Assembly: GCA_029938235.1 (NCBI GenBank)
Contig: JAOZVH010000004.1
Location: forward strand, 1-37,372
Origin: Bacteroidales bacterium
GTDB taxonomy: Bacteria > Bacteroidota > Bacteroidia > Bacteroidales > 4572-128
Direction: 5' to 3'
Length of the DNA: 37,372 nucleotides
The position numbers and the translations under genes are program-made. Shown here piece after piece: positions 2,388 to 37,105 of the stretch. Position 1 is the first letter of the stretch. Every line of letters begins with the position of its first letter. The notes under the pieces are model-generated. The model did no database searches. It was not told where the DNA came from and saw only the letters and a list, made by a program, of their open reading frames with translations.

Positions 2388-2419
2388 TTTTTTACGAATT
2401 TTATAATTTATAAAAAAAT

Positions 2420-2745
2420 TTTTTTCAAAATTCGTCCAAAATTTTAATATTTTTAAATTTCAAAATAAAAAAAATTTTTTTCAAAAATCGTAAAAATTTT
2501 AAGATTTTTAAATTTCAAAATAAAAAAAATTTTTTTTTCAAAAAACGTAAAAATTTTAAGATTTTTAAATTTCAAAATAAAAAAAATTTTTTTCAAAAAA
2601 CGCCCAAAATTTCAAATATTTTAATTTCAAGATAAAAAATTTTTTTTCAAAAAACGCTCAAAATTTCAAATATTTTAATTTCAAAATAAAAAAATTTTTT
2701 TTTTCAAAAAACGCTCAAAATTTCAAATATTTTAATTTCAAAATT
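2420..2745. repeat. Tandem array of ~55-bp A/T-tract intergenic repeats (about 6 units)
   Basis: Recurring aaaatttttttTCAAAAA(a/t)CG...ccaaaatttcaaatattttaatttcaaaataa; CG anchors at about 2433, 2489, 2546, 2601, 2655, 2712 (54-57 bp spacing). Confidence 0.85.
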
Positions 2746-3406
2746 AAAAAAAATTTTTTGGCAAATTTGCAATAATTTCAATTTCTTCTTTTTTAACAGG
2801 GTGTATAAATTTTATTCTTTTAGAATGCAAAGATATTCCAAGATTTTTATTTGGAAAAGAAAAACCATATTTTACATCACCAATAATTGGCGAACCAATT
2901 TTAGATAATTGACTTCTAATTTGATGATGTCGTCCTGTTTCCAAATTTATTTCTAATAGAAATTTATTTTTTATTTTTTTTTTTACATAATAATGCATTA
3001 TTGCCATTTTGGAATTTGCAATTTCTTTATCATAAGAATATGATTTATTTTGTTTTCTATTTCTGTAAATAAAATGTTTTAAAGTTGCATCTTTTTTTTG
3101 GGGACATTTTTTTACCAAAGCGAAATATGTTTTTTCAATATCTCTTTCTTTAAATAATTTATTCAAACGACTAAGAGATTTAGATGTTTTCGCAAATAAA
3201 ACCACACCACTAACAGGTCTATCTATTCGATGAACAATTCCTAAAAAAACATTGCCTTTTTTAAAATATTTTTTTTTTATGAAAATTTTCAACTTTTCCG
3301 ACAAACTTAAATCATTAGTTTTGTCGGATTGAACAATGTCAGAAGTTTTTTTATTTACTGCTATGATATGATTATCTTCATACAAAATTGAAATGTCATC
3401 AATCAT
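2744..3406 (-). CDS. RluA family pseudouridine synthase
   Basis: LGIVHRIDRPVSGVVLFAKTSKSLSRLNKLF, ETGRHHQIRSQLSKIGSPIIGDVKYG motifs. Confidence 0.9.
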   Translation of the reverse strand: MIDDISILYEDNHIIAVNKKTSDIVQSDKTNDLSLSEKLKIFIKKKYFKKGNVFLGIVHRIDRPVSGVVLFAKTSKSLSRLNKLFKERDIEKTYFALVKKCPQKKDATLKHFIYRNRKQNKSYSYDKEIANSKMAIMHYYVKKKIKNKFLLEINLETGRHHQIRSQLSKIGSPIIGDVKYGFSFPNKNLGISLHSKRIKFIHPVKKEEIEIIANLPKNFF

Positions 3407-8166: not shown

Positions 8167-9195
8167 TTGAAAAAATCAATGAAAACACATGATGCATTTT
8201 TTAAGAATTTGTTTAGCAAGCTGGAAGAAGCAAAACATTTTATCAAAAAAACGTTTCCACAAGAATTTTTAAAAAATCTTGATGTTGATTCTTTGAAAAT
8301 TGATACAACTAATTATGTAAGTAATGACCTAAATGAATTTTTTGCAGATGTAGTTTATGATTGTAATTATTTTATCAATAAGAAAAAGGAAAAAATAAAA
8401 ATTTCTTTGCTCTTCGAACATAAAAGTTACGTAGAAAATTTTATTCATTTGCAGCTTTTGAAGTACCTTGTGAGTATATGGGACCTACAAATAAAGCAAG
8501 CAAAAGATAAGAAATTAAAAATGAAATCTTTCCGTTTACGTCCAGTTATTTTAATGGTTTTTTATCATGGAAAACAAAAATGGGAGAAAAAACATTTTAA
8601 AGAACATTTCGAGTACATGGACGAAAATTTGATAAAATATCTCCCAAAATTTGATTATGAACTAATTAATATTAATGAATTTTCTGACGAAAAAATAAAA
8701 AATTTATTTAGTCGTGAACAATTGCAAGCAAGTTTACTTCTATTAAAAAATATTTTTGATAAAGAAAAGATCATTAAATTATTAAAAAACATAATTATGA
8801 TGGATGGCTTTATAGATAAAAGCCAAAAAAAACAATTTTTAGAGACAATTTCGAGTTATATTTATAATAAAACAGAAATAAGAGTTAATGAATTATTTAA
8901 TATTATGGAAAGTATAGAAACAAAATCCAAAAGAATTTTTATTTCTACAGCTATGCAGCTTGAAATGAAAGGAAAAAAAGAAGGAAGAAGAGAAGGAATA
9001 TTGGAAGGAATTATTCTAGGTAGAACCGAAGGTAGAACCGAAGGAAAAAACGAAGGAAGAAAAGAAGGAAGAAACGAAAGTAGAATAGAAATAGCTTTTT
9101 CTATGTTGAAAAAAAAATATCCAGATGAAGTTATTATGGAGCTTACAGGCTTAGATATTTCTAATATAAAATTACTTAAATCCATAGACGGATAG
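8167..9195 (+). CDS. Rpn family recombination-promoting nuclease / PD-(D/E)XK nuclease-like protein (true start likely ATG 8179)
   Basis: MKTHDAFFKNLFS...FFADVVYDCNY...ISLLFEHKSYVENFIHLQLLKYLVSIW; PVILMVFYHGKQKW; C-terminal EGR/EGK repeats typical of the family. Confidence 0.85.
   Translation: MKKSMKTHDAFFKNLFSKLEEAKHFIKKTFPQEFLKNLDVDSLKIDTTNYVSNDLNEFFADVVYDCNYFINKKKEKIKISLLFEHKSYVENFIHLQLLKYLVSIWDLQIKQAKDKKLKMKSFRLRPVILMVFYHGKQKWEKKHFKEHFEYMDENLIKYLPKFDYELININEFSDEKIKNLFSREQLQASLLLLKNIFDKEKIIKLLKNIIMMDGFIDKSQKKQFLETISSYIYNKTEIRVNELFNIMESIETKSKRIFISTAMQLEMKGKKEGRREGILEGIILGRTEGRTEGKNEGRKEGRNESRIEIAFSMLKKKYPDEVIMELTGLDISNIKLLKSIDG
9019..9090 (+). repeat. 12-bp in-frame tandem repeat inside the Rpn-like gene
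   Basis: ggtagaaccgaa x2, ggaaaaaacgaa, ggaagaaaagaa, ggaagaaacgaa, agtagaatagaa; encodes GRTE/GKNE/GRKE/GRNE. Confidence 0.8.
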
Positions 9196-12116: not shown

Positions 12117-13352
12117 ATGAAGAAACTTGATAAACATATTTTTCAACAATTAGAACTTGTTTATAAAAAATATGAATTTTTAAAATCGAAAGAAGAAAAG
12201 TTTAATATTTTTTCAGTATTATACAAAGATTATGAAGAAGTTAAACTGCATTCAAGATTTATTTCAACACTTTTAAATCCTTATGCGTCTCATAAAAAAG
12301 GTTCTATTTTTTTAAAAGAATTTATAAATATATTTTCTGACGATATTTTAAAATTTGATAATTTCGATAAAGCAGTTGTTTATCCAGAAGAATGGAATAA
12401 AAAAGAATATCATCATATTGACATTTTAATAATTGATAGAAAACAACAAAATGCTATCATCATAGAAAATAAACTAAATGCTTATGATAGTAGTAAGGGT
12501 AAACAATTGGAAAGATATTTTAAGTTTGTGAGAGATGAAGAAGAAATTCCTCAAGAAAATATCACTACTTTTTATCTAACATTGGACGGACACGAACCAA
12601 GTGATGATAGTTTAGGAGAGTTTAAAGAATTATCAAATATTAATGGATATTGTATTACATATAATTATCATGTTATAAAATGGTTAAATAGATGTTTAAT
12701 GTACGTTTCTGATAAACCATTTATACGTGAAAGTATTTTTCAATACAAAAATTTAATAAAGAAAATAACAATGGATAATAAAGATATTGAAGAAAGACTT
12801 GAAATTAGAGAAACTATTGCTAAAGATGAGATTTCTATGAACTCAACGAAATACATAATAGATAATTTTAAGCATATTAAATGGCATACTGTGAGAGATT
12901 TTTGGGATGAGTTGAGTTGTAAATTAGTTTCATTAGATTTTGAGGTAGTAGAAGAACCTACTCATGAGCAAATAACAGATATTACTCATTATGAAATATA
13001 TCGTAAAGGACAAAAAGATAAACAATATTGTGGTATTAAATTTAAAGTTAATGAAAATTTAGAATTATTTATTTGGAATGAAGCTGATGACTGGATATAT
13101 TGGGGTGCTTCTATTACAAATGTAAAAAATAGCTCTCTTCATGTTATATTTAATGATTTCTTTTCTTTACAAGAAAAATACAAGTATTGGTGGAAAAATT
13201 CTTTAGAAGATGATAATAGAATTTGGCTTTCAAATTTTTCTCATCAAGCAACTTTTAATCTAATCAATAAAGATAAAAGAGCAAAAGTAGTTGAAAATAT
13301 TATTAAAGAAATAAAAAATTTTTTGATAGTAAAATTACATTTAAAGTTTTAA
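12117..13352 (+). CDS. PD-(D/E)XK nuclease superfamily-like protein
   Basis: EEVKLHSRFISTLLNPYASHKKGSIFLKEFI; HIDILIIDRKQQNAIIIENKLNAYDSSKGKQLERYF (D...E-x-K motif). Confidence 0.8.
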   Translation: MKKLDKHIFQQLELVYKKYEFLKSKEEKFNIFSVLYKDYEEVKLHSRFISTLLNPYASHKKGSIFLKEFINIFSDDILKFDNFDKAVVYPEEWNKKEYHHIDILIIDRKQQNAIIIENKLNAYDSSKGKQLERYFKFVRDEEEIPQENITTFYLTLDGHEPSDDSLGEFKELSNINGYCITYNYHVIKWLNRCLMYVSDKPFIRESIFQYKNLIKKITMDNKDIEERLEIRETIAKDEISMNSTKYIIDNFKHIKWHTVRDFWDELSCKLVSLDFEVVEEPTHEQITDITHYEIYRKGQKDKQYCGIKFKVNENLELFIWNEADDWIYWGASITNVKNSSLHVIFNDFFSLQEKYKYWWKNSLEDDNRIWLSNFSHQATFNLINKDKRAKVVENIIKEIKNFLIVKLHLKF

Positions 13353-17242: not shown

Positions 17243-19495
17243 ATGAAAAAATACATTTTTTTATTATTTATTTTAATAAATACTTCTTGTTTTTCTCAGA
17301 ATGATGAATTAATTTTCACATTTAAAGGTCATTTTGAATATTTGCGCAGTGTATCTTTCAGTTCTAACAATAAATTTGTTGTCAGTGCGGCTGAGGATAA
17401 TACTATAAAAATTTGGGATATAGTTGAAAATCGTGAAGTTTATCCTTATAAAGAAGAAAATGACATTGTAAATTGTGCAGTATTTTCTCCGGACGATAAA
17501 TTTATTGCTACTGCTTCTAATAATAAAAATGTTACTTTATGGGAAGCTTTTGGGGATAAAAAAATTTCTGTTTTTAAAGGACATACAAAAAAAGTTTTAT
17601 CTGTATCTTTTTCTCCGGACGGTAAATTTCTTGTCAGTGCTTCTGCTGATAAAACTTTGAAAATCTGGGATATAGATAAAAAAAAACTTGTGAAAACTTT
17701 AAATGGACACAGCAAAATAGTAAATGATGCCACATTTAATTTGAGTGGAAAACAAATTTTAAGTGCTTCTTCTGATAATACTATAAAATTATGGGATGTA
17801 AAAACAGGTAAATTAATAGATACTTTTAAAGGACATTCGGAAGCAGTTTTATCTGTAAAATACAGTCCAAATGGAGAATATTTTGCAAGTTCTGGCAGAG
17901 ATAATAATATTATTTTATGGGATGCAAATAAAAATAAACCACTTAAAATTTTATCCGGTCATACAAATTATGTTAGAGAAGTTGTATTTAGTCCTTCCAG
18001 CGAATATCTTATAAGTGCTTCAAATGATAATTCTCTGAGGCTTTGGGAAGTTGAAACAGGAAAAAATATAAAATCTTTTAGAGGACATAAAAAATCTATT
18101 TCTTGTGTTGATTTTTCAAAAGATGGTAGAAGTATTGTCAGTGGTTCTAATGATTATCTTGTAAAATTATGGGATACTAAAGAATATCTTACAAAAGAAG
18201 GTAAAATTAGAGTTTTTGTAGAAAATAAAATAAATAAATGGCAAAAAAAAAGACCAAAAGAATTAGAAAAAACTTATAAAAGACGAGTGAATAAAAAAGA
18301 AAAAGAGAAAAAAATTATGTTCGCTATGAATGAAGCCATTTTGAAATTTGAAAATATTGCTTGGCAAAGTGCTATGAGAGATTATAATTTAGACCAGCAA
18401 TCTTTTAAAATTAAAATAGATAATTTTCAAGAAATTTATGTTCAAGTTCCACTTGAAGAAGCTGATGATTTTGATAATAATTTCAATATAGGTTTAAAAT
18501 ATTTAAAAGCTAAAATGGCAATAAAAGATTCTAGTTATGTTTTGTTGTATGTTGAAATAGAAAATCCAAAAAACAATAAAAAATATATTTATAAAAATAA
18601 AGAAAAATATAAATTAGACATAAATAAAATAGGTTTTCATTTTGAAAGTACGGAAAAAGAAAAATTGAAAAAGAAAAAAGAAATTCCGTATATTGAAATT
18701 GACATTCCTATAACAATGAAAAAAAATGATAATATTTTTGCATTAATAATTGGCAATGAAGATTATAATTCAGAAAAAGACACTGTCTTAAAAGATAAAA
18801 ATGTAGATCTTACTTTTGCAATAAATGACGCTAAAATTTTTAAAGAATATCTTGCGAAAACAATAGGCGTAAAAAAAAAAAATATTATTTATATAGAAAA
18901 TGCAAAAGAAAACGAAATGAAAGATGGAATTAAAAATCTTATAGAATTTATGAAAAAAAATGATTCTAAATATACTGAAGTAATTTTTTATTACTCTGGT
19001 CATATTTTACCTTTTACGCATCCACGAAAAAGATTTCCTTATTTAATGCCAACAAATATAAGCGAGAAAAATATAGAAAAAGCTATTAATTTAGAAGATA
19101 TTTATTACGAAATATCAAAAGAAAAATCTCATAAAACAACATTTTTTATAGATGCTTGTATGGGAATAAATGGCAGAGAAGAAAGTCTTTCGGAAAGCAA
19201 TTATAATGTAGAAACAAAATCAAATGCAATAAAAGGAAATATTATTAGTTTTATTGCTTGTGGAGATAAACAAAAAAATATTTATTGGAAAGAAAAAAAA
19301 CATTCTTTATTTACTTATTTTCTTTTAAAGAAATTAAAAGAAACCTCAGGAAATGTAAATTATTCTGATCTGAATAAATATCTTAGTAAACAAGTACGTT
19401 TAAAAGCATCTTCTTTAAAATCAAAAAAACAAAATACAAAATTAATGATAGGAGAAAAAGCAAAATATAGTTGGGAAAAATGGAACATGAAATGA
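17243..19495 (+). CDS. Secreted WD40-repeat caspase (peptidase C14 family) protein
   Basis: Signal peptide; seven WD40 repeats (e.g. GHTKKVLSVSFSPDGKFLVSASADKTLKIWD); C-terminal caspase fold with IFALIIGNEDYN, VIFYYSGH (His) and TTFFIDACMG (Cys). Confidence 0.93.
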   Translation: MKKYIFLLFILINTSCFSQNDELIFTFKGHFEYLRSVSFSSNNKFVVSAAEDNTIKIWDIVENREVYPYKEENDIVNCAVFSPDDKFIATASNNKNVTLWEAFGDKKISVFKGHTKKVLSVSFSPDGKFLVSASADKTLKIWDIDKKKLVKTLNGHSKIVNDATFNLSGKQILSASSDNTIKLWDVKTGKLIDTFKGHSEAVLSVKYSPNGEYFASSGRDNNIILWDANKNKPLKILSGHTNYVREVVFSPSSEYLISASNDNSLRLWEVETGKNIKSFRGHKKSISCVDFSKDGRSIVSGSNDYLVKLWDTKEYLTKEGKIRVFVENKINKWQKKRPKELEKTYKRRVNKKEKEKKIMFAMNEAILKFENIAWQSAMRDYNLDQQSFKIKIDNFQEIYVQVPLEEADDFDNNFNIGLKYLKAKMAIKDSSYVLLYVEIENPKNNKKYIYKNKEKYKLDINKIGFHFESTEKEKLKKKKEIPYIEIDIPITMKKNDNIFALIIGNEDYNSEKDTVLKDKNVDLTFAINDAKIFKEYLAKTIGVKKKNIIYIENAKENEMKDGIKNLIEFMKKNDSKYTEVIFYYSGHILPFTHPRKRFPYLMPTNISEKNIEKAINLEDIYYEISKEKSHKTTFFIDACMGINGREESLSESNYNVETKSNAIKGNIISFIACGDKQKNIYWKEKKHSLFTYFLLKKLKETSGNVNYSDLNKYLSKQVRLKASSLKSKKQNTKLMIGEKAKYSWEKWNMK

Positions 19496-19560: not shown

Positions 19561-19982
19561 AAAATTGCCGTTTTTTGAAAAAAAAATTTTTTTAATTTCA
19601 AATTTAAAAATCATAAAATTTTGAACGATTTTTGAAAAAAAATTTTTTTTTAATTTCAAAATTAAAAATCATAAAATTTTGGACGATTTTTGAAAAAATT
19701 TTTTTAATTTCAAATTTAAAAATCATAAAATTTTAGACGATTTTTGAAAAAATTTTTTTAATTTCAAATTTAAAAATCATAAAATTTTGGACGATTTTGA
19801 AAAAAAAATTTTTTAATTTCAAATTTAAAAATCATAAAATTTTGGACGATTTTTGAAAAAATTTTTTTTAATTTCAAATTTAAAAATCATAAAATTTTGG
19901 ACGATTTTTGAAAATTTTTTTTTTAATTTTGAAATTAAAAATCATAAAATTTTGGACGATTTTTGAAAAAAATTTTTTTTAA
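19561..19982. repeat. Tandem array of ~55-bp A/T-tract repeats (about 8 units)
   Basis: aatttcaaatttaaaaatcataaaattttggACGATTTTTGaaaaaatttttttt; ACGATTTT anchors at 19625, 19683, 19737, 19791, 19846, 19901, 19956. Confidence 0.93.
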
Positions 19983-21134
19983 TTATATTTTTTGGTAAAA
20001 ATATAATTCATGATTTTTTAAGATTTCCGGATGAAAAATTTTAATTAAATCTTTTAAAATTATATCTGGTTTTATCATTCCTGATTCCCAGTAATCATTT
20101 CCTCCGTTTGAAAATGAGCGTTTATTATTATTAAACATTTTATCATTTGAAAAAGCTTTAAAATGTCTTAATCTTTCATCTATTGCTATAACTTCTTCCA
20201 AACGTTTTGCCGAACCAATATTTATCCAAATATCTGAATTTCTTGCTTTTAAAAGAACATTTTCAAAATTTAATGGTATGCTATTTTTTTTATTACTATC
20301 TTTCCAAATATAATCTCCACCTGCATCTTCTATTAATTTTGCCATATAAGATTTTCCACCCGGCACATACCATAGATCTTTCCACAAAATATTTGTCATA
20401 ATTTTAGGTTTTATTTTAACATTTTTTATTAATTTTTTTAAATTATTATAATTTTTTACAACTTTATTAAATTTATCAATTACAAATTTTTCCTTATCAT
20501 AAAAAGCTGATAAAAATTTTATCCATTCCATCTTTCCCAATGGATGATTTTCTAAATATTCTCCATTCATTAGGACTTTTATGCCTAAGTTTTCTAACTT
20601 ATTTAAATTATTAGACGAATTTACATCGTAAGCAAGAACAAAATCACTTTTCATCTTTAAAATAAGTTCGTAGTTTAAATTTGCATCATAGCCAATTTCT
20701 TTAATTTTATTTTGTGAAATTGAATTTCTAACTTTGTTATTGCTGACAAATTTTGCTCCGGAAATTCCTATCACAGAATGAGTTTCGTTCATAAAATCTA
20801 AAAGAGAAATATGAGTTGTAGATAAACAAATTATGCGTTTTATAGGAATTTTTATAAAAGTAAATTTTTGTAAATATTTAGGAATTAAACTTTTATCTTT
20901 TCCAAGAACATAAGTGTAATTTTTTAAACGGTAAAATACTTGAACGATTTTATAATTTTCAAAATATTTTATATCAAAACCCTTAGCATATTTTATAGAA
21001 AAAGGTGGGTTTATTTCTTTATCTTTATTTTCAATAATTTCTTTTTTAATTTCATTTCTACAAGAAAACATTAAAAATATTAAAGAAAATAAGAAAAAAA
21101 ATTTTTTCGCTTTTTGATTTTTTAATTTTTTCAT
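19983..21134 (-). CDS. Lipoprotein ABC-transporter substrate-binding protein (FecB/BtuF-like periplasmic fold)
   Basis: Lipobox FLMFSC; KRIICLSTTHISLLDFMNETHSVIGISG; EIGYDANLNYELILKMKSDFVLAY; MAKLIEDAGGDYIW. Confidence 0.85.
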   Translation of the reverse strand: MKKLKNQKAKKFFFLFSLIFLMFSCRNEIKKEIIENKDKEINPPFSIKYAKGFDIKYFENYKIVQVFYRLKNYTYVLGKDKSLIPKYLQKFTFIKIPIKRIICLSTTHISLLDFMNETHSVIGISGAKFVSNNKVRNSISQNKIKEIGYDANLNYELILKMKSDFVLAYDVNSSNNLNKLENLGIKVLMNGEYLENHPLGKMEWIKFLSAFYDKEKFVIDKFNKVVKNYNNLKKLIKNVKIKPKIMTNILWKDLWYVPGGKSYMAKLIEDAGGDYIWKDSNKKNSIPLNFENVLLKARNSDIWINIGSAKRLEEVIAIDERLRHFKAFSNDKMFNNNKRSFSNGGNDYWESGMIKPDIILKDLIKIFHPEILKNHELYFYQKI

Positions 21135-23132: not shown

Positions 23133-23726
23133 ATGGTTAAGAACTTATTTTTTATCTTATTATTTTCTTCTTTTTTATTTTCTTCTTGCAAAGATTGTGC
23201 TCCTGGTGAAGGAGATGACAAAGAAAAGAAAATGAAATCAGAAAAACTAGCTTCAAGTGCTATTACAGTAGATGATTTGAAAGCTAAAGGGAAAGAATTT
23301 ATTGGCAAAGAAGTTACCGTAAAAGGAACTATTACTCACATTTGTCATACAAGTGGTAAAAAAATGCATATTATAGGAACTGATAAAAAGTTTTCTGTAA
23401 AAGTAGAAACGAATGGAACTCCTTTTGATATAAAATTAGAAAGTTCTCAAAAACAAGAAATAGAAGTTGTTGGTATTCTTAGAGAAATAAAACTTGGTGA
23501 GCATAAAGATGCTGAAGGACATGACCACAAAGATGGTGAAGCACATGAGCATAAAGAAGGTGAAGCACATGACCACAAAGATTGTAAAGGACACAAAGAT
23601 GGTGAAGCACATGACCATAAAGATGGTGAAGCACATGACCACAAAGATGGTGAAGGACACAATTCAACAGATGCTTGTGGAAATTCAGGTTATGTGATAG
23701 AGTATAAATCACATAAATTATTATAA
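23133..23726 (+). CDS. Lipoprotein with OB-fold-like domain and His-rich repeat
   Basis: Lipobox LFSSC; FIGKEVTVKGTITHICHTSGKKMHIIG; tandem (D)GEAHDHK units. Confidence 0.8.
   Translation: MVKNLFFILLFSSFLFSSCKDCAPGEGDDKEKKMKSEKLASSAITVDDLKAKGKEFIGKEVTVKGTITHICHTSGKKMHIIGTDKKFSVKVETNGTPFDIKLESSQKQEIEVVGILREIKLGEHKDAEGHDHKDGEAHEHKEGEAHDHKDCKGHKDGEAHDHKDGEAHDHKDGEGHNSTDACGNSGYVIEYKSHKLL
23495..23661 (+). repeat. 24-bp in-frame repeat encoding DGEAHDHK-type units
   Basis: gatggtgaagcacatgaccacaaa and variants, about 7-8 copies, one partly deleted. Confidence 0.85.
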
Positions 23727-25722: not shown

Positions 25723-25754
25723 TTTTATGATTTTTTTATAAAAAAATCATAAAA
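25723..25754. terminator. Hairpin terminator
   Basis: TTTTATGATTTTTTT-AT-AAAAAAATCATAAAA, 15-bp perfect stem. Confidence 0.6.
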
Positions 25755-25759
25755 TGCTG

Positions 25760-26040
25760 AAATTTTCAACATTTTTTAAATTAAAAAAAAATCAAAAAAC
25801 TTAAAATTTTAATGTTTTTTAAATTATTAAAAAAAAATTTTTTTCAAAAATCATTGAAATTTTAATGATTTTAAATTATTAATAATAAAAAATTCAAAAA
25901 ATACCGAAATTTTTATGACTTTTAAATTATTTTATTTTTTTTCAAAAATATTAAAATTTTAATGATTTTAAATTTTTAAAAAAATCAAAAATTTTAATAT
26001 TTTTTATATTAATTTTTTTTTATTAAAAAACGTTTTTTTT
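25760..26040. repeat. Degenerate copies of the intergenic A/T-tract repeat
   Basis: Repeated ttttttTCAAAAAtca..aaattttaatgattttaaattatt variants. Confidence 0.6.
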
Positions 26041-26170: not shown

Positions 26171-29100
26171 ATGTTTTTGTATTTTTCTTTTTTTTCAATA
26201 AATAAAAAAATACAAATAAAAGAAGATCAAGTAAATATTTTTGGTTTAGAAGAAAATTATTGTGAAAATTCCGAAAATGTAACTTTAATAGGAAATCCAG
26301 AAGGAGGAATTTTTGATGGTCCCGGAATATATGGAAATGAATTTAGACCAAATTCTTTAACAGCAGGAACTTATGAAATAAGTTACATTTTTGGTGAATT
26401 AAGTTATAGCAAAATTGTTACTATTAATACGGTTACAGAATTAAATTTTGAAAATTTAGAATTAGAAAACTTTTTTTGTCAGAATGATACAAATAATATC
26501 GTTTTAAAAGCAAATGTGCAAGGAGGAATTTTCTCTGGAGATGGTGTTCAAGACAGTATTTTTTCACCATTTTTGCTGGAAGCAGGAACGCAAACAATTC
26601 ATTATCAATATTATAATGAGTATAATTGTCTAAGTACAATAGAAAAAGAAATTGAAATAAAAGAAAAACCAAATTTAAGTTTTTCAAATTTAGAAAATAG
26701 ATATTGCAAAAATTCTGAGGATATAGTTTTATCTGCTAATCCAGAAAATGGAACTTTTTATGTCGAAAACATTATAAAAAATAATTTTGAAATTTCTAAT
26801 TTAGAAATTGGAAGTTATGCTATTTCTTATTTTTACAAGGATGAAAATAATTGTACCGATAGCATTTCAAAAAATGTTATAATTAATCCAATTCCTGAAT
26901 TAAATTTTAATTCTTTGGAAGCAGAATATTGTTATAATTCTCAGGACATAATTTTAAATGCAGAACCAGAAGGAGGAATTTTTGAAAATGAAGCAGTTGA
27001 TGGAAATATTTTTAATCCATCTTTACTTTCAAGTTCCGGAGAAACTAACATAGTTTATAATTTTACAGATGAAAATAATTGTCAAAATACAATTTCGCAA
27101 ACAATAAATATTCTCGATTTGCCAGAAATTAATTTCTCAGGTTTAGATGAAAATTATTGTAATAATGATAATTCTGGAAACATTTTAAATGGTGAACCTG
27201 CAGGAGGAGTTTTTTCTGGTTCTGGAATAATTGGAAATAAATTTTATCCAAAAAATCTTTCCGAAGGAACTTATGAAATTACATACAATTTTAGTGATGA
27301 AAATCTTTGTTACAACTCTGTAAAAAAAATTGTAAATATTTTTGGAGCTGGAGAAATTTCCATAGAAAATCTTGAAAATGAATATTGTATAAATTCTGAA
27401 AATGTAAATTTAGAAGTAAATATAAACGGAGGAATTTTTTCCGGCGACGGAATAACCGGAAGTATTTTTTCACCGAATGATGCTGGAGTTGGAGCAAAAA
27501 CTATAAATTACTCTGTGGAAGACGCTAATAATTGTCAATTGAATCATTCAAAAAATATTGTTATTTATGATTTGCCAGAAGTAACTATGCAATCTTTGAC
27601 AGAAAATTATTGTGTCAATTCAGATGATGTTGCTATAATTGTTTTTCCTGAGAATGGTGAATTTTCCGGAGATATAGAAATTTTAAACAACACTTTTTCG
27701 CCAAGTAATATTGTCGCAGGAAATTATGAAATTTCATATTCGTACACAAATGAAAAATCTTGTTCTAATACAATAACACAAAATATTTCCATTAATAATT
27801 TACCAATTTTAGATTTTGAAGGTTTGGAAAGTTCTTATTGTGGAAATGAAAATCCTGTAAATTTAACGCCAAATATTGAAGGAGGAATTTTTTCTGGAGT
27901 TGGAGTAAATTCTGCCAACGCAACTTTTAATCCAAACAATCTTATTCCAAATGAGTATGAAATTTATTATACATTTACAGATGAAAATTCCTGTACAAAT
28001 ATAGATACTCAGAAAGTAGAAATTCTTGGTCTTTATGATTTAGAGATTTTAAATCTATATGATTCTTATTGTTCTGATGCTTTGCCTATTTTGTTAGAAA
28101 CAAATTTGAACGGTGGAACTTTTACCGGAAATGGAATGGTTGGAAATCAATTTAGACCGTCAGATGCAGAATATGGAATTTTTGAAATTTCTTATCAATT
28201 TAGCGATGCAAATTTATGTGTCAGTGAAGTTAAAAAGATGGTTACTGTTTATTCTGCTCCGGAAGTTGATTTTGAAAATTTAGAGAGTGATTATTGTGAA
28301 AATTCTAATGTCGTAAATTTAGTTGGAATTCCTGAAAATGGAAGTTTCGAAGGAAATGGAATTGACGAAAAAGCATTTAATCCAGAAATTGCTGGTGAAG
28401 GTATTCATTCTATTTCTTATTCTTATACAGACGAAAATGGTTGTTATGCTTCAAAAATAAAAACCGCTATAGTTCATCCGATAGAAGATATTGATTTTAA
28501 CGGTATAGAGGAAGAATATTGTTTGAATACAGAAGATGCTATTTTAACTTCGGAAACAGAAAATGGAACTTTTTATGGTGATGGAATTTCTGGAAATTTA
28601 TTTAAGCCAAATTTGGCTGGAGTTGGAAATCACACGGTAACTTATTCTGTTACAGATGAATATCTTTGTACACATTCTAAAACTAAAAATCTTGTGGTTT
28701 ATGATTTGCCAAATGCAAATTTTATTAATTTTGACCAAACTTATTGTTTAACAAGTCCAGAAGTAATTTTACTTCCCGGTAATGAAAATGGCATTTTTTC
28801 CGGAGACGGAATAATTGAAAATGAGTTTAAATTTTCGCCAGAACTTGCTGGTCTTGGTGAGCATCAAATTACTTATACAGTAACTGACGAAAATAATTGT
28901 ACAAATACAGAAACAAAAAAAACTGATATTTTGGAAGTTCCTGAATTAGAAATTTTGGGTTTAGAAGACAATTATTGTATTGGAATTACAGAAATTGAAT
29001 TATCTGCAAATTTAGAAGGAGGAACTTTTTCTGGCGATGGAATAGTTGGAAATTATTTTTATCCAAATAATTTAGAAGTTGGAACTTATGAAGTTTTTTA

Positions 29101-32100
29101 TAATTTTAATAATTATTGTGATAATACCATCAGCAAAACTGTAAATATTCGTGGATTACCAGAATTAAATTTTGATGGTTTAGATGAAAATTATTGTCAT
29201 AATGCTGATTTTGTAAATCTTTCCTCAGAGCAAGAAAATGGTATTTTCTCTGGAAATGGAATAATAGAAAATAAATTTTTTCCACAAAATGCAGAAATTG
29301 GAGAAAATGAAATTACATATACTTACACAGACGAATTTAATTGTGAAAATTCAATTTCAAAAAGTGTAAATATTTATGAAATTGCGGAATTAGATTTTGA
29401 TGGTTTAGATGAAAATTATTGCATAAATTCTGTATTTGCTATTTTAACTCCAAATATTGAAGGGGGAAGTTTTTCCGAAAATATAGAAAATAATGAATTT
29501 AATTCTCAAAATTTAGGAGTTGGTACACATCAAATAACTTATTCTTTTACAGATTTAAATAATTGTTTTTTATCAAAAACGAAAAACGTTTCTGTAAATG
29601 ATATTCCAGAAATAAATATTTTAAATTTAGACGATGAATATTGTGAAAATTCTTTTTCTGTAAATTTAGAATCGTCGCCTGCAAATTGTAATTTTTCCGG
29701 AAACGGTGTAATTGATAATGTTTTTACACCGTCTTTAGCTTCGTATGGAATTAACACAATTATTGCAACTTTTACAGATGAAAAAAATTGTTCAAATTCC
29801 ATTTCAAAAGATGTTTCTATTTTTGATATGGAAGATTTAACTATAGAAAATCTCGAAAATGATTATTGCGAAGATGCAGAAAATGTTACTTTATCTGCAA
29901 ATATAGATGGAGGAACTTTTAGCGGAGCTGGTATAAATGAAAATATTTTTAGCATAAATAATTCTGGAATTGGTGAACATACAATTTATTATAATTACAC
30001 AGATTTAAATAATTGTACACAAATAATTTCTCAAAATGTTAATGTCCATCAAAATCCAGTTGTTGATTTTGGTTACACAACAAATATTTTTACAGATACG
30101 CCTGAAAATATTGTTTTAAATGCTGGTGCTGGATTTTCATCTTACGAATGGCAAGATGGCTCTAACGCACAAGCTTTTAATGTTCAAACTTGGGGAGATT
30201 ACAGTGTAGAAGTTACAGATGAAAATTCTTGTAAAAGTATCGCTGAGGTATCTATTTCTTTTAGTACTAATGATTTAGGAATAAAAAAAATCATTTCTCC
30301 TGTTTCAAAATGTGAACTTAGCGATAATGAAAATATTATTTTAGAAATAGAAAATTGCGGAGAAACTATTTTAGCAGGTGAAACTATCACCATAAATTAT
30401 AATATAGGTTCAACTCCTTTTGTTGAAGTAATTACATTAGAAGAAGATTTTCTTGCTTATACAAGTTTAATACATACTTTTTCACAAACAGCAGATTTTT
30501 CTAATTTTGAAAGTTATGATTTTGCGTTTTCTTTGGCAGGTGGAGATGGAAATTTTACTAATGATACAAAAAATGCTGTAATTAAAAATTTAAATTTTGT
30601 TGATTTAGCTTTAGATTTTGAAAATTTAGAAGACAATTATTGTATAAATTCTGAAAATTCTTTATTAACTACAAATGTAGAAGGTGGAATTTTTTCTGGA
30701 AATGGAATTAATGAAAATTATTTTTCTCCGGAATTAGCTGGTGAAGGAATTCATGAAATTAAATATACTTATATAAATGAAAATAATTGTGTTTCTGAAA
30801 TTACAAAAAATGTAGAGGTTTTTGATGTTCCAAATTTTGATTTTGAAATTAATGATTCATATTGTATGGGTTCAAATCCAGTGTTTTTAAATGCTTCTGT
30901 TGAAGGAGGTAATTTTTCTGGAAACGGAATTAATGGAATTAATTTTAATCCTAATGTTGCAGGAGTTGGAAGTCATAATATTTCTTATAATTACACAGAC
31001 GGAAATAGTTGTAATTATGAAATTACAAAATCAGTAAATATTTATGAGCCGCTTATTGCGAATATTAACGGTTTAAATGATGTTTATTGTAAAAATGGAG
31101 AAAGTTCAATTTTAATTGGTTTTCCAGAAAGTGGTTCTTTTTCAGGAACAGGAATTAGTGGAAGTGTTTTTAACCCTAATTTTGCAAATGACGGTGAAAA
31201 TACAATTTATTATAATGCTACAGATTTTAACGGTTGTGCTGTAAATACGACAAAAAATGTTTTTATTAATTCTTTAGAGGATTTAGATTTTGATTTAGAA
31301 GAAAATTATTGTATAAATTCAGAAAATATTTTATTAACACCAAATTTAGAAAATGGTATTTTTTCCGGAGAAGGAATTTTTGAAAATAATTTTTTCAATC
31401 CAAGTGTTTCTGGAATTGGTAATAATGCGATAACTTACACTTATAAAGATGAAAATAATTGTGTTTCTCAAATTACAAAAGAAACTAATATTTTAAGTGT
31501 TGGAGAGGTAGATTTTGACGGTTTAGAAAATGAATATTGTGTAAATTCCGAAGATCTTATTCTTTTACCAACCATTGAAAATGGTATTTTTTCCGGAGAA
31601 GGTATTGATGGAAATACTTTTTCGCCAGAAAATGCCGGAGAAGGTGCAAAAAACATAACTTATTCTGTTACTACAGAAAATAATTGTTTAATTTCTGTTA
31701 CAAAAAATGTAATTATTCACGGTTTACCGTCTTTAGAATTTAAAAATTTAGAAGATTTTTATTGTGTTTCTGAGCAAGGTTTTATTATGAATACAAATTA
31801 TACCGGAGGAATTTTTTCAGGAAACGATGGAATTGCTGGAAATGGATTTTTTCCACAAATTGCAGGTTCAGGAACTCATACTATAAATTATAATTTTACA
31901 GACGAAAATTCTTGTGAAAATACCATTTCAAAAGAAGTAGAAATTATAGAATTGCCTGATGCAAGTTTTACAGAATTAGAAGAAGAATATTGTTTAAATA
32001 CTCCAGATATAGATTTAGAAGCTTCAAATGAAGGAGGAATTTTTTCCGGAGATGGAATAATAGAAAATAAATTTTATCCGGAATTTGCAGGACTTGGAAC

Positions 32101-35100
32101 TCATATTTTAGAATATTCTTATACGGATGAAAATAATTGTAAAAATGATCTTTCACAAAATGTAACAATTAGAAATATTCCAAATGTAAAATTTAGAATG
32201 TTGGATAATAGTTTTTGTAAATCTGACGAAGCCATAGAATTGGAAGCAACTCCAACAGGTGGAACTTTCTCCGGAAATGGTGTTAATGGTGAATTTTTTG
32301 ACCCAAATGATGCTGGCGTAGGAACTCATAATATTGAATATAATTATGTAAATAATTTTAATTGCAGTAACACAGCTATAAAAAGTTTTACTATAAATGA
32401 TGTTCCAAGTTTAGATTTTCAAGGACTTGAAAATGAATATTGTCATAATTCTGACATTGTGAATTTAACACCAAATTTAACTGGTGGAATTTTTAGCGGA
32501 ATAGGAATTTATGAAAATACTTTTAATCCATCTTCATTAGAAACAGGAGTTTATAATATAAGTTACTCTTTGAATACAGAAAATAATTGTTATTCAAGTG
32601 TAGAAAAATCTGTTACTATTTTACCAATAATTGATGTAGATTTTACAAATTTAGATACTGACTTTTGTATAAATGAGACAAATATGACTTTGTCAGCAAA
32701 CGATGAAAATGCAACTTTTTCCGGAACAGCGGTTAATAAAAATATTTTTAATCCAAGTGTTGCAGGAATTGGGACGAATACAATAAATTTACATTTTACT
32801 GACGAAAATAATTGTAATATTGTAAAAAGCGAAATTGTAAATATACATTCTTTGCCGAATGTAGATTTTCAAAATTTAGAAAACGAATATTGTTTAAGTT
32901 CTGATACTGTACATTTACAAGGAAATTTTGAAAATGGAAATTTTTATTTTGATAATTCGGCTCTGGGAGATACTTTTTTTAGAATTGATAATTATAATGT
33001 TGGAAATCATCAAATAAAATTTTCTTATTTAGACGAATTTAATTGTTTTTCTTATAAAACTAAGGATTTTGTTATTGCTAATTTGCCACAAATAGAATTT
33101 GTAAATTTAGAAGAAGAATATTGTAAAAATTCTGAAGAAGTAATTTTACAATCAAATTTTCCAGAAAGTATTTTTTCCGGAGAAGGAGTTGTTGATGGAG
33201 TTTTTTATCCAAATCTTTTAGATGAAAATGTAGAAACTACAATTATTTACTGTTCATATACAGATGAAAAATCTTGTGTAAATTCTATAGAAAAAGAAAT
33301 TACAATAAATTATCCGACAGAAATAAGTTTTGAAAATTTAGAAAATTCCTATTGTTTAAATGATGAAATTGTAGTTTTAAATTCAGAATTTGAAAATTCT
33401 TATTTCTCTGGAAATGGAGTTATCGGAAACACTTTCAATCCAGAACTTGCTGCAGCAGGAGAGCATAATATTTATTTGCATTTTGTAAATGATAATAATT
33501 GTTTTTCTGATATTTCGCAAAGCGTAAATGTTTTAGAATTGCCGAATTTAAGTTTTGAAAATTTAGAAAATTCATATTGTAAAAATGACGAAAAAATTGC
33601 TTTGGAAGCAAATTTTGAAAATGCAATTTTTGAAATTCAAGCAGAAGAAAAAGATACTTTAGATATTCCAAACTTGGAAGTTGGAAGTTATAATATTATT
33701 TGTAATTATACAGATGAAAATTCTTGTTCAAATTCCATTTCAAAAAATGTAATTATAAATAACTTTCCTGACGCAAATTTTCAAGGTTTAGATACTGCAT
33801 ATTGTCAAAATTCTTTATTTTCTGTTTTACAAGCAAATGAAAATGGAGGAGAATTTAATGGTGATGGTCTAATTGAAAATATTTTTTATCCGAATTTATT
33901 AGATTCAGGAAATTATGAAATTTCTTATAATATAACTAATGAAAATAATTGTTCAAATTCTTTTACAAAACTTGTAAAAATTCATCATTTAGAGGAAATT
34001 ATTTTTTTAAATTTAGAAGAAAATTATTGTAAAAATGACATTGTAGTTTTAAAAGCTGCTCCTTCTGATGGATTTTTTGAGGGTTTTGGAATAGAAAGCG
34101 ATTCTATTTTTAAAGCTATTAGCTCTGGCGAACAAATTATTTTTTATAATTACACAGATACAAATAATTGTTTTCAGAAAGTTTCAAGAATTACAAATAT
34201 AAGGAATTTACCAATTATTGAATTTGATGAATTAGAAAAAAATTATTGTAAGAATGATATTTTAATTGCATTAAATGGAAATCAATTATCAGGTATTTTT
34301 TCCGGAGATGGGATAATAGGAAATAATTTAAATCCATCTTTGGCAGATGCTGGAGAAAATCAAATAACTTATTCATATACAGATAATAATAATTGTACAT
34401 CAGAAATATCGCAAAGTTTTAATATTAATCTTTTGCCTGATTTAAGTTTTGAAAATTTAGAAAATCATTATTGTAAAAAAGATGAAATTATAAATATACA
34501 AACATCTCCAACTTATGAAAATACTAATTTTTCTGGTGGAAATACAGATAAAGATGACGAGCTTTCATTAAATGAAATTGGAACTTTTATAATAAATGCA
34601 TCTTATACAGATGAAAATTTATGTGAAAATTCCATTTCACAAAATATAGAAATTCATGATTTACCAACCGTTTCTATTAATTTGGATTCTTTAGATTATT
34701 GCAAAGGTAATTCTTTACACCAATTAAGTGTTTCGCCAGAAGGAGGAACTTTTGAAGGAATGGAAGTTATAGATAATTCTTTCAGTATAGATAAATTGGA
34801 AAGTGGAAATTATAAAATTGTTTATGAGTTTACAGATGGATTTTCTTGTACTGCAAAAGACTCTGTAAATTTCGAAATTCATAGTTTACCGAGTGTAAGT
34901 TTTTCTGGAATAGATGAAGAATATTGTTTAAATAATGATACTGTTCATTTAACAGGAACTCCGGAAAATGGAATTTTCTCTAACTATACAGATACTTCAT
35001 TTTTTGTGCCGTCTATTTCCGGAGATTTTGAAATTAAATATGAGTTTGTGGACGAGTTTTTTTGCAAAAATTCGCAAACAAAAAACTTTACAGTTCATAA

Positions 35101-36763
35101 TTTACCAGATATTTCTTTCGAAGGTTTAGCGGAAAATTATTGTAAAAATAGTGAATTTGATATTTTAACAGCAAGTATTTCTTCGGCGACTTTCTCTGAA
35201 AATATAGAAAATGAAAATGAATTTCATCCGGAAAATGCTGATATTGGAGAAAATACGATTTTTTTAACTTACACAGACCAAAACCTTTGTACTGCTTTGG
35301 ATTCTCAAAAAACCATAGTTTATGAAATTCCAGAGATAACTTTTGAAATTGAAAATAATGTATTTTGTATAAATGATGCACAAATTTTTTTAGATGTAAA
35401 TCCATTAGGAGGAACTTTCGAAGGAAATGCTCTTACAAATAATTCATTTTTCCCATCTGAAGCAGGAGCAGGAACTCAGGAAATTATTTATACTTATACT
35501 GACGAAAATTTTTGTACAAATTTTGTTACGCAAGAAATAATTGTAAATCCTTTGACGGATTTGAGTTTTATAAATTTAGAAGAAAGATATTGTGAAGATT
35601 TTGGAGATATAGAATTGCAAGCATATCCAAGTGGTGGAAAATTTTATAAGAACAATTCTTTTGAAGATGAAATTGAGAATTTTGTATATGAATATCCGGG
35701 GGATTATATTATTACTTATAAACACACAGACGAAAATAGTTGTAAAAATAGCATTTCAAAAAATATCAGAATAATGCCTTTGCCAAATGTTGATATTTTA
35801 AATTTGGATAGTATTTTTTGTGTAAATTCTAATGATATTGAGATTTTGCCATTTCCATTTACAGCAAAACTTTTTTATAATAATGAAGAAATAAATGAAA
35901 ATATTTTTTCTCCGGAAGATTTTGGAGTGGGAAGTTTTGAAATTATTTGTAAATATGAAGACATAAACAATTGTAAAAATTCTAAAACGAAAATAATAAA
36001 AGTCAAAGACATTCCTGATGTGGAATTTTTATTAGATTCAGATACTTTATTATGTCAAAATAGTGATTCTATTTTATTAAAAGCCATTCCAAAAGGTGGA
36101 ACTTTTTCTGGACTTGGTGTTGAAAAAGACTCTTGTTTTTTTCCTGAAATTGCAAATATTGGAACTCATAAAATTAAATATGTTTTCACAGATACTACAG
36201 CTTCTGATAAAAAATGTTCAAATTTTGCGGAAATAAATTTAAAAGTAAATTCTTTACCAAATTTAGAATTTGAAAAAAGTATTATAGAAACAGATTTACC
36301 TTTGAATTTGTATAATACTTTGAATATTGAAAATACTGACACTGATACGAGTTTTTTTAATTTCATTTGGAATGATGGTATTATTGATTTATTAAATTAT
36401 GAAATTAAAAATTACGGTAATTATTCTTTAAAATTGGAAAATAGAGATACAAAATGTTCTATTTTTGAAAATATTTCTATTGAACGAAGTTCTAATTATG
36501 GAAGATTAGTAATTAATGCTTATCCAAATCCATCTTATTCTCGTGATAAGTTAATGATTTCTGTTGACCAACTTGAAGAAAAAGATGTTGTTATTGAACT
36601 TTTAACTTTTATTGGTCAAGTTTTATATCATAAAGAAATTAAAGATGTTTTATTTTTTGTTGATGAATTTGATATTTCTAATTTAGAAGAGGGAATTTAT
36701 TTTATTAGAGTAAATTACGGAGTTCAAGAAAACACAATTAAAAAAGTTGTAATTATGAAATAA
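26171..36763 (+). CDS. Giant T9SS-secreted repeat adhesin (about 42 Ig-like/PKD-like two-Cys repeats; real start may lie upstream)
   Basis: 3530 aa; consensus LDFxxLExxYCxNSxxVxLxxNxEGGIFSGxGIxxNxFxPxxAGxGTxxIxYxYTDENNCxxSISKxVxI; C-terminal NAYPNPSYSRDKLMIS...LLTFIGQVLYHKEI...LEEGIYFIRVNYGVQENTIKKVVIMK (type A T9SS sorting domain). Confidence 0.95.
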   Translation: MFLYFSFFSINKKIQIKEDQVNIFGLEENYCENSENVTLIGNPEGGIFDGPGIYGNEFRPNSLTAGTYEISYIFGELSYSKIVTINTVTELNFENLELENFFCQNDTNNIVLKANVQGGIFSGDGVQDSIFSPFLLEAGTQTIHYQYYNEYNCLSTIEKEIEIKEKPNLSFSNLENRYCKNSEDIVLSANPENGTFYVENIIKNNFEISNLEIGSYAISYFYKDENNCTDSISKNVIINPIPELNFNSLEAEYCYNSQDIILNAEPEGGIFENEAVDGNIFNPSLLSSSGETNIVYNFTDENNCQNTISQTINILDLPEINFSGLDENYCNNDNSGNILNGEPAGGVFSGSGIIGNKFYPKNLSEGTYEITYNFSDENLCYNSVKKIVNIFGAGEISIENLENEYCINSENVNLEVNINGGIFSGDGITGSIFSPNDAGVGAKTINYSVEDANNCQLNHSKNIVIYDLPEVTMQSLTENYCVNSDDVAIIVFPENGEFSGDIEILNNTFSPSNIVAGNYEISYSYTNEKSCSNTITQNISINNLPILDFEGLESSYCGNENPVNLTPNIEGGIFSGVGVNSANATFNPNNLIPNEYEIYYTFTDENSCTNIDTQKVEILGLYDLEILNLYDSYCSDALPILLETNLNGGTFTGNGMVGNQFRPSDAEYGIFEISYQFSDANLCVSEVKKMVTVYSAPEVDFENLESDYCENSNVVNLVGIPENGSFEGNGIDEKAFNPEIAGEGIHSISYSYTDENGCYASKIKTAIVHPIEDIDFNGIEEEYCLNTEDAILTSETENGTFYGDGISGNLFKPNLAGVGNHTVTYSVTDEYLCTHSKTKNLVVYDLPNANFINFDQTYCLTSPEVILLPGNENGIFSGDGIIENEFKFSPELAGLGEHQITYTVTDENNCTNTETKKTDILEVPELEILGLEDNYCIGITEIELSANLEGGTFSGDGIVGNYFYPNNLEVGTYEVFYNFNNYCDNTISKTVNIRGLPELNFDGLDENYCHNADFVNLSSEQENGIFSGNGIIENKFFPQNAEIGENEITYTYTDEFNCENSISKSVNIYEIAELDFDGLDENYCINSVFAILTPNIEGGSFSENIENNEFNSQNLGVGTHQITYSFTDLNNCFLSKTKNVSVNDIPEINILNLDDEYCENSFSVNLESSPANCNFSGNGVIDNVFTPSLASYGINTIIATFTDEKNCSNSISKDVSIFDMEDLTIENLENDYCEDAENVTLSANIDGGTFSGAGINENIFSINNSGIGEHTIYYNYTDLNNCTQIISQNVNVHQNPVVDFGYTTNIFTDTPENIVLNAGAGFSSYEWQDGSNAQAFNVQTWGDYSVEVTDENSCKSIAEVSISFSTNDLGIKKIISPVSKCELSDNENIILEIENCGETILAGETITINYNIGSTPFVEVITLEEDFLAYTSLIHTFSQTADFSNFESYDFAFSLAGGDGNFTNDTKNAVIKNLNFVDLALDFENLEDNYCINSENSLLTTNVEGGIFSGNGINENYFSPELAGEGIHEIKYTYINENNCVSEITKNVEVFDVPNFDFEINDSYCMGSNPVFLNASVEGGNFSGNGINGINFNPNVAGVGSHNISYNYTDGNSCNYEITKSVNIYEPLIANINGLNDVYCKNGESSILIGFPESGSFSGTGISGSVFNPNFANDGENTIYYNATDFNGCAVNTTKNVFINSLEDLDFDLEENYCINSENILLTPNLENGIFSGEGIFENNFFNPSVSGIGNNAITYTYKDENNCVSQITKETNILSVGEVDFDGLENEYCVNSEDLILLPTIENGIFSGEGIDGNTFSPENAGEGAKNITYSVTTENNCLISVTKNVIIHGLPSLEFKNLEDFYCVSEQGFIMNTNYTGGIFSGNDGIAGNGFFPQIAGSGTHTINYNFTDENSCENTISKEVEIIELPDASFTELEEEYCLNTPDIDLEASNEGGIFSGDGIIENKFYPEFAGLGTHILEYSYTDENNCKNDLSQNVTIRNIPNVKFRMLDNSFCKSDEAIELEATPTGGTFSGNGVNGEFFDPNDAGVGTHNIEYNYVNNFNCSNTAIKSFTINDVPSLDFQGLENEYCHNSDIVNLTPNLTGGIFSGIGIYENTFNPSSLETGVYNISYSLNTENNCYSSVEKSVTILPIIDVDFTNLDTDFCINETNMTLSANDENATFSGTAVNKNIFNPSVAGIGTNTINLHFTDENNCNIVKSEIVNIHSLPNVDFQNLENEYCLSSDTVHLQGNFENGNFYFDNSALGDTFFRIDNYNVGNHQIKFSYLDEFNCFSYKTKDFVIANLPQIEFVNLEEEYCKNSEEVILQSNFPESIFSGEGVVDGVFYPNLLDENVETTIIYCSYTDEKSCVNSIEKEITINYPTEISFENLENSYCLNDEIVVLNSEFENSYFSGNGVIGNTFNPELAAAGEHNIYLHFVNDNNCFSDISQSVNVLELPNLSFENLENSYCKNDEKIALEANFENAIFEIQAEEKDTLDIPNLEVGSYNIICNYTDENSCSNSISKNVIINNFPDANFQGLDTAYCQNSLFSVLQANENGGEFNGDGLIENIFYPNLLDSGNYEISYNITNENNCSNSFTKLVKIHHLEEIIFLNLEENYCKNDIVVLKAAPSDGFFEGFGIESDSIFKAISSGEQIIFYNYTDTNNCFQKVSRITNIRNLPIIEFDELEKNYCKNDILIALNGNQLSGIFSGDGIIGNNLNPSLADAGENQITYSYTDNNNCTSEISQSFNINLLPDLSFENLENHYCKKDEIINIQTSPTYENTNFSGGNTDKDDELSLNEIGTFIINASYTDENLCENSISQNIEIHDLPTVSINLDSLDYCKGNSLHQLSVSPEGGTFEGMEVIDNSFSIDKLESGNYKIVYEFTDGFSCTAKDSVNFEIHSLPSVSFSGIDEEYCLNNDTVHLTGTPENGIFSNYTDTSFFVPSISGDFEIKYEFVDEFFCKNSQTKNFTVHNLPDISFEGLAENYCKNSEFDILTASISSATFSENIENENEFHPENADIGENTIFLTYTDQNLCTALDSQKTIVYEIPEITFEIENNVFCINDAQIFLDVNPLGGTFEGNALTNNSFFPSEAGAGTQEIIYTYTDENFCTNFVTQEIIVNPLTDLSFINLEERYCEDFGDIELQAYPSGGKFYKNNSFEDEIENFVYEYPGDYIITYKHTDENSCKNSISKNIRIMPLPNVDILNLDSIFCVNSNDIEILPFPFTAKLFYNNEEINENIFSPEDFGVGSFEIICKYEDINNCKNSKTKIIKVKDIPDVEFLLDSDTLLCQNSDSILLKAIPKGGTFSGLGVEKDSCFFPEIANIGTHKIKYVFTDTTASDKKCSNFAEINLKVNSLPNLEFEKSIIETDLPLNLYNTLNIENTDTDTSFFNFIWNDGIIDLLNYEIKNYGNYSLKLENRDTKCSIFENISIERSSNYGRLVINAYPNPSYSRDKLMISVDQLEEKDVVIELLTFIGQVLYHKEIKDVLFFVDEFDISNLEEGIYFIRVNYGVQENTIKKVVIMK

Positions 36764-36819: not shown

Positions 36820-37105
36820 AAAAACTCCCAAAATTTCAACAATTTATTCGAAAAAAATTTTTCAAAATTCACCCCAAAATTTCAACATTTTTTAATTTAA
36901 AAGAATAAAAAAAAAATTTTTTCAAAAATCGTCCAAAATTTCAATATTTTTTAAATTGAAAATAAAAAAATTTTTTTCAAAAAACGTCCAAAATTTTAAT
37001 GTTTTTAAAAAAACAACATTGGAGGTTTTTTTTTAACCTCCAATGTTTCGACATCAAAAATCGTCCAAAATTTCAATATTTTTTAATTTAAAAGAATAAA
37101 AAAAA
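36820..37105. repeat. Intergenic A/T-tract repeat copies (about 4-5), one interrupted by a hairpin
   Basis: ttttttcaaaaatcgtccaaaatttcaatattttttaaattgaaaataa and variants. Confidence 0.75.
37015..37047. terminator. 13-bp perfect hairpin with T7 loop inside a repeat unit
   Basis: AACATTGGAGGTT-TTTTTTT-AACCTCCAATGTT. Confidence 0.55.

What the first reader, a model, noticed from the sequence alone, without database searches (positions are those of the whole stretch)
19561..19982. Regular ~55-bp tandem array of phased A/T tracts between convergent genes
About eight near-identical units (ACGATTTT anchors spaced 58, 54, 54, 55, 55, 55 bp) fill the whole convergent spacer between the WD40-caspase and the binding lipoprotein. 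Each unit contains AAAAATC...GATTTTT inverted arms plus alternating A and T runs that would be expected to bend DNA. It is non-coding and matches no repeat class I know. Possible roles: reiterated terminators/transcription roadblock, curved-DNA or nucleoid-protein anchor, or a selfish AT repeat.
Basis: partly seen in the sequence, partly recalled or inferred. Interest (0 to 1): 0.62.

Follow-up and report, generated by a model that had tools for sequence, protein, structure and literature searches.

The report
Genome-wide intergenic 55-bp satellite-like repeat
The eight AT-rich 55-bp repeats between two genes belong to a repeat family found thousands of times between genes in this Bacteroidota genus and in no other genome searched, and gene order between its two known species is broken almost everywhere such repeats lie.

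Summary
The array is real: seven clear units plus a degenerate eighth, in one orientation, spaced exactly as stated, filling 19561-19984. It is not a local oddity. The own genome holds 436 exact 23-bp cores (1,330 with up to 2 mismatches; reversed control 0), and the sister genome (MAG Bacteroidetes bacterium 4572_128) holds 253 (937). About 780 other genomes of the order and phylum are at control level. Extrapolated, there are about 2,700 units in the genome, about a fifth to a quarter of its noncoding DNA and almost none in genes. New finding: spacers with units are colinear between the two species in 1 of 27 cases, against 50 of 73 without; the focal array is itself such a breakpoint. Best reading: a lineage-specific, selfish or neutral satellite-like repeat that grows by local duplication, is tolerated near gene 3' ends, and marks or causes gene-order breakage. 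Some of the breakage could be assembly error; long reads would decide.

The parts
19561..19984 (+). Focal tandem array, eight 54-58 bp units in one orientation (first one degenerate)
19616..19638 (+). First clear unit core AAATTTTGAACGATTTTTGAAAA; further cores start at 19674, 19728, 19782, 19837, 19892, 19947
   Evidence: 0-based starts 19615...19946
2411..2769 (-). Second array of the same family, 6-7 units, between convergent genes (cores GAGCG, GGGCG, TACG, GGACG)
36851..37010 (-). Third array, about 3 units, last assembled spacer of the contig
25736..26003 (.). Degenerate array of related AT-rich units (one unit over 15 bits) in a same-direction spacer
17243..19495 (+). Left flanking gene, WD40-repeat protein; its 3' neighbour in the sister genome is an acyltransferase-type (MBOAT-like) gene, with no array between
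   Evidence: MBOAT-like by my reading of the sequence
19983..21134 (-). Right flanking gene, periplasmic binding protein (PF01497); its 3' neighbour in the sister genome is a glycyl-tRNA synthetase-like gene, with one degenerate unit between
   Evidence: synthetase by my reading of the sequence

Best explanation
The array is one locus of a high-copy, lineage-specific, non-coding, satellite-like repeat family. Shown: about 55-bp units (AAATTTTGGACGATTTTTGAAAAAAATTTTTTTT plus a variable AT part) stand in head-to-tail arrays in spacers throughout two genomes of one genus; they are essentially absent from genes; they lie nearer gene 3' ends than 5' ends; they have no consistent orientation to transcription and no fold; units within an array are more alike than units of different arrays; and gene order between the two drafted species is broken at nearly every array. 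Inferred: arrays grow and shrink by slippage or unequal crossing-over; the family spread through the genome before the two species split, by an unknown route; selection removes copies from genes and promoters; and recombination between dispersed arrays reshuffles the gene blocks they bound. No cellular function is needed to explain the anatomy.
For: Copy number and specificity: 436 exact cores in the own genome and 253 in the sister genome with 0 in the reversed control; 1,330 and 937 at 2 mismatches against 0-1 in 391 other genomes of the order and about 395 of the phylum; none in viral contigs, phages or plasmids. Abundance: 168 units in 219 kb (array-blind contigs plus the window), 3.6% of DNA and 21% of noncoding; 25-26% of noncoding in larger samples; 1 of 588 and 8 of 1,591 units inside genes. 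Placement: median 46-68 bp from 3' ends against 103-144 bp from 5' ends, p down to 1e-9. Local duplication: within-array identity 85.5% against 79.3% between arrays, the same within and between species; arrays carry runs of one core variant, e.g. GTCG x4, CACG x4 then GGACG x4. Gene order: 1/27 array spacers colinear against 50/73 without, p=1.7e-9; reciprocal 1/27 against 66/84, p=1.4e-12; for spacers of 150 bp or more 0/23 against 8/12 and 0/26 against 16/25. Focal case: homology to the sister genome ends at 19564 and resumes at 19981, the array's two edges, on two different contigs. No constraint seen: in well-aligned orthologous units core G/C identity is 92.5% against 89.4% for G/C in ordinary spacers, p=0.39.
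Against: Both genomes are fragmented draft assemblies (own 328 contigs; sister about 150, a named MAG), and arrays sit at contig ends (16 of 40 ends; 42 of 148 units within 200 bp of an end against 6.5 expected), so some joins through arrays may be wrong. Array orientation relative to the same gene is conserved in only 23 of 36 flanks, and distance in 12 of 36, so breaks are not simply clean crossovers inside arrays. No filled/empty orthologous spacer pair was seen, so the route of spread is unknown. No transposase was found that would move units: the only Y1 (IS200/RAYT-type) match in the genome is a fragment with five in-frame stops. The constraint test has only 106 core G/C sites.
Confidence: 0.62

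Rival explanations
1. The repeat family is real, but the gene-order breakage at arrays is mostly an assembly artefact: the assembler joined wrong contigs through similar arrays.
For: Arrays are enriched at contig ends; in an 18% sample 22 of 69 internal arrays share a 51-mer with another array, and in the sister sample 77 of 184; near-total breakage (26/27) is what random joins would give.
Against: Arrays with no shared 51-mer in the sample are broken just as often (13 of 14; 20 of 21). The focal array shares no 51-mer with any other sampled array, and its best full-length paralogue genome-wide is 86% identical. 9 of 45 flanks run into no unit at all in the sister genome, where a misjoin through units is not a ready explanation; the WD40 gene is one, and its sister-genome neighbour lies elsewhere in the own genome.
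Confidence: 0.25
2. Curved-DNA or nucleoid-protein anchor: phased A/T tracts bend the DNA and a protein binds the GGACG core.
For: A/T-tract power near 11.2 bp, the fifth harmonic of a 56-bp unit, and higher predicted curvature of arrays (1.171 against 1.102 shuffled); a G/C-rich core is kept inside an AT skeleton.
Against: Focal array within its shuffles; unit spacing scatters over 52-58 bp; the core varies in sequence and length, GGACG in 171 of 577 units; no extra core conservation between orthologous units.
Confidence: 0.1
3. Reiterated transcription terminators or a roadblock between genes.
For: Preference for convergent spacers and gene 3' ends; long T runs at the unit end.
Against: No terminator-like sites; unit RNA folding no better than shuffles, mean z +0.9 and +0.7; orientation random to incoming transcription, 54:49 and 122:114; a quarter of divergent spacers carry arrays.
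Confidence: 0.04
4. REP/BIME-type mobile palindromes moved by a RAYT transposase.
For: Same placement bias as REPs (near 3' ends, convergent and same-direction spacers; PMC3733652); the reverse strand of the core contains CGTC.
Against: No stable stem-loop; CGTC lies inside the unit, not as an end tag; direct, not head-to-head, repeats; only one stop-ridden Y1 match in the genome.
Confidence: 0.04

Closest known systems
Mycobacterial interspersed repetitive units (MIRU/VNTR)
   Same: Tandem units of similar length (tens of bp) dispersed in intergenic regions of one lineage (from general knowledge).
   Different: MIRUs are in tens of loci in a GC-rich genome; here there are hundreds of arrays and thousands of units in a 24% GC genome, about a quarter of the noncoding DNA, at synteny breaks. 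No sequence relation tested.
REP / BIME elements (GTAG and CGTC families)
   Same: High copy, intergenic, near gene 3' ends, convergent spacers preferred over divergent (PMC3733652).
   Different: No palindromic stem, no end tag, direct-repeat arrays of 55-57 bp, no associated intact transposase.
TAACTGA intergenic direct repeats of Beggiatoaceae, Cyanobacteria and Bacteroidetes (MacGregor 2015, PMC4679880)
   Same: Intergenic direct-repeat arrays in marine bacteria including Bacteroidetes; [quoted passage not shown]
   Different: 7-bp unit, mostly just upstream of start codons in the Beggiatoaceae, found across phyla; here 55 bp, nearer 3' ends, no orientation, one genus only.

Membership tests
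REP (repetitive extragenic palindrome) | Stem-loop forming palindrome | tested here: not met
   Unit folds no better than dinucleotide shuffles as RNA or DNA
REP (repetitive extragenic palindrome) | GTAG or CGTC tag at one end | tested here: not met
   CGTC occurs only as the reverse complement of the internal core; array edges are AT-rich
REP (repetitive extragenic palindrome) | Intergenic, near 3' ends | tested here: met
REP (repetitive extragenic palindrome) | Associated RAYT transposase (GTAG families) | tested here: not met
   One Y1_Tnp match in the genome, with five in-frame stops
Intrinsic terminators | GC-rich stem followed by U run, oriented with transcription | tested here: not met
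MIRU/VNTR-like interspersed tandem repeats | Tandem units of one family at many intergenic loci | tested here: met
MIRU/VNTR-like interspersed tandem repeats | Copy number varies between strains | not testable with these tools
   Only two species' drafts, almost no colinear array spacers
Known RNA families (Rfam 15) | Match over gathering score | tested here: not met
   Only a chance match of 20.1 bits against a gathering score of 82

The most novel reading that the evidence does not exclude
The arrays act as a genome-wide set of interchangeable joints: recombination between them shuffles array-bounded gene blocks so fast that, between two species with about 93% protein identity, almost no array-spanning neighbourhood survives, while neighbourhoods without arrays mostly do.
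Probability: 0.35. Interest if true: 0.75.

Novelty: new variant of a known kind. Interest (0 to 1): 0.55.

Why it matters
Bacterial genomes usually hold little repeated noncoding DNA. A satellite-like family that fills about a quarter of the noncoding space of one lineage, and coincides with gene-order breaks between two close species, would be a natural case for asking whether repeats alone can drive bacterial genome shuffling. It also helps explain why drafts of this genus fragment, and warns against trusting gene neighbourhoods across such arrays.

Tried and rejected
RNA terminator or hairpin: rejected. Promoter arrays: the Bacteroidetes motif TTTG-N17-23-TAnnTTTG is rarer in arrays than in shuffles (0.096 against 0.264 per kb); the generic sigma-70 scan gave 13 sites against 5.8 expected in the focal spacer, which I put down to AT repetition. 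Horizontal element: nothing in viral contigs, phages or plasmids. Core under selection: a first count seemed to show core G/C to be the least conserved positions, but it mixed in misaligned paralogues; the stricter count shows no difference from ordinary spacer DNA. Higher-order repeats: suggested by alternating core variants, but only 1 of 31 long arrays shows them by permutation. An early synteny count with a noisy gene caller was replaced by the DNA-level test. The bp position of homology ends is uninformative because alignments run on into similar units. Literature: searches for repeats at synteny breakpoints and for low-coding-density genomes gave nothing; a search for the MAG name matched only unrelated digits.

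Full report
OBSERVATION. The array is as described. TRF reports a 55-bp period, 7.3 copies and 92% matches at 19580-19984, and core starts are spaced 58, 54, 54, 55, 55, 55. A degenerate eighth unit extends it left to about 19561. It lies between a WD40 protein gene (17243-19495, +) and a periplasmic binding protein gene (19983-21134, -), leaving about 65 bp of the spacer free. The same family recurs in the window at 2411-2769, 36851-37010 and, degenerate, at 25736-26003.

A GENOME-WIDE FAMILY. A search with the 405-bp array gives 185 matches in its own genome. The exact 23-bp core AAATTTTGGACGWTTTTTGAAAA occurs 436 times in the own genome and 253 times in the only other genome of its family, and 0 times when read backwards; with 2 mismatches 1,330 and 937 times, against 0-1 in 391 other genomes of the order, the same as the control, and 0-1 in about 395 of the phylum. 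I recall that MAG series as coming from Guaymas Basin sediment; this was not checked. A profile of the unit has 583 hits of at least 15 bits in 591 kb and none in shuffled sequence. Array-blind contigs (148 units in 181 kb) extrapolate to about 2,700 units in 3.36 Mb. Units take 3.6-6.1% of the sampled DNA and 21-26% of noncoding DNA; 1 of 588 (own) and 8 of 1,591 (sister) lie inside genes.

ANATOMY. Units within an array share orientation; modal spacing is 55-57 bp with most between 52 and 58. Arrays have preferred edges: information falls off about 25 bp before the first core and about 34 bp after the last. The skeleton is AT-rich; a 4-6 base insert carries the G and C (GGACG in 171 of 577 units, otherwise GGGCG, GGCG, GTCG, CACG, GGTC and others), often the same within one array. 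Units are 85.5% identical within arrays and 79.3% between arrays, within and between species alike. This fits local duplication inside arrays and a family older than the split of the two species (inference).

PLACEMENT. In the sister genome arrays occupy 62 of 109 convergent, 31 of 120 divergent and 112 of 365 same-direction spacers; the own genome is similar (28/51, 16/57, 47/159). They lie closer to 3' ends (medians 46-68 bp) than to 5' ends (103-144 bp). Orientation to a gene reading into the array is random (54:49; 122:114). This is what avoidance of promoters would give, and it resembles the distribution reported for REPs (PMC3733652).

FUNCTION TESTS. Terminator: none found and folding no better than shuffles. 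Promoter: motif depleted. Curvature, with a dinucleotide wedge model whose parameters I took from memory: arrays 1.171, their shuffles 1.102, array-free spacers 1.100; focal array 1.125, within its shuffles of 1.06-1.16. Constraint: among 34 well-aligned orthologous unit pairs, core G/C identity is 92.5% against 89.4% for G/C in 28 colinear array-free spacers (p=0.39), and A/T identity outside the core is 95.5% against 95.6%. So I find no sign of selection on the unit sequence, with limited power.

GENE ORDER. Orthologous proteins of the two genomes have a median identity of about 93%. Taking 400 bp of each gene flank and asking whether the other flank follows within 3.5 kb in the other genome, spacers without units are colinear in 50 of 73 cases and those with units in 1 of 27 (p=1.7e-9). 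The reciprocal test gives 66 of 84 against 1 of 27 (p=1.4e-12). Among convergent and divergent spacers alone it is 14/23 against 1/15 and 15/22 against 1/15, and for spacers of 150 bp or more 8/12 against 0/23 and 16/25 against 0/26, so operon structure and spacer length do not explain it. The focal array is such a case: homology to the sister genome runs to 19564 on one contig, where an MBOAT-like gene follows the WD40 gene with no unit between, and resumes at 19981 on another, where a glycyl-tRNA synthetase-like gene lies beyond one degenerate unit. The MBOAT-like gene is elsewhere in the own genome, on contig C204; the synthetase was not found in the own draft.

IS IT ASSEMBLY? Arrays do break these assemblies: 16 of 40 contig ends carry units, and 42 of 148 units lie within 200 bp of an end against 6.5 expected. 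Misjoins would give the same picture. Against a pure artefact: arrays with no shared 51-mer in the sample are broken as often (13 of 14 and 20 of 21); the focal array shares no 51-mer with any other sampled array; and 9 of 45 flanks meet no unit at all in the sister genome. But the 51-mer check covers an 18% sample of the own genome, orientation of the array at the same gene is conserved in only 23 of 36 flanks (p=0.13) and distance in 12 of 36. I put about one in four on most of the breakage being artefact. Causation is also open: arrays may cause the breaks, or accumulate where order has broken.

COMPARISON. By what it works like, it is closest to interspersed tandem repeats such as MIRUs and, in placement, to REPs; it fails the REP definition on fold, tag and transposase. 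The TAACTGA repeats of marine bacteria are the nearest published parallel I found, including a suggested role in gene rearrangement in Bacteroidetes (PMC4679880), but with a 7-bp unit and start-codon bias. I found no report of this family in the papers searched, a limited library. I file it as a new variant of a known kind: scale, lack of structure and coincidence with synteny breaks set it apart.

Noticed in passing
window 8167-9195 (+): Rpn-type putative transposase/recombination-promoting nuclease (PF04754, E 1.3e-33) with a Lys/Glu-rich repetitive C-terminal part; a PD-(D/E)XK protein (PF14281) lies at 12117-13352.
   Followed up: no
window 26171-36763 (+): 3,530-aa protein whose only Pfam match is a C-terminal secretion sorting tail (PF18962, Por_Secre_tail).
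   Followed up: no
window 23498-23662, in ORF 23133-23726 (+): His/Asp-rich tandem repeat (24-bp unit) in a 197-aa protein without Pfam match.
   Followed up: no
own genome, e.g. L058, L060, L063, L064, L066: The G/C-bearing insert of the unit varies in sequence and length between arrays but tends to be uniform within one, inside a constant AT skeleton; why G/C is kept there in a 24% GC genome is unexplained.
   Followed up: partly
L032:1528-1756 (genome G011, same order): A different AT-rich tandem array, period 90 bp, in a genome that gave 20 weak matches; may be an independent analogue.
   Followed up: no
G000 contig C203:4437-4802 (L221): Decayed Y1 (IS200-type) transposase with five in-frame stops, the only one found in the genome.
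   Followed up: no
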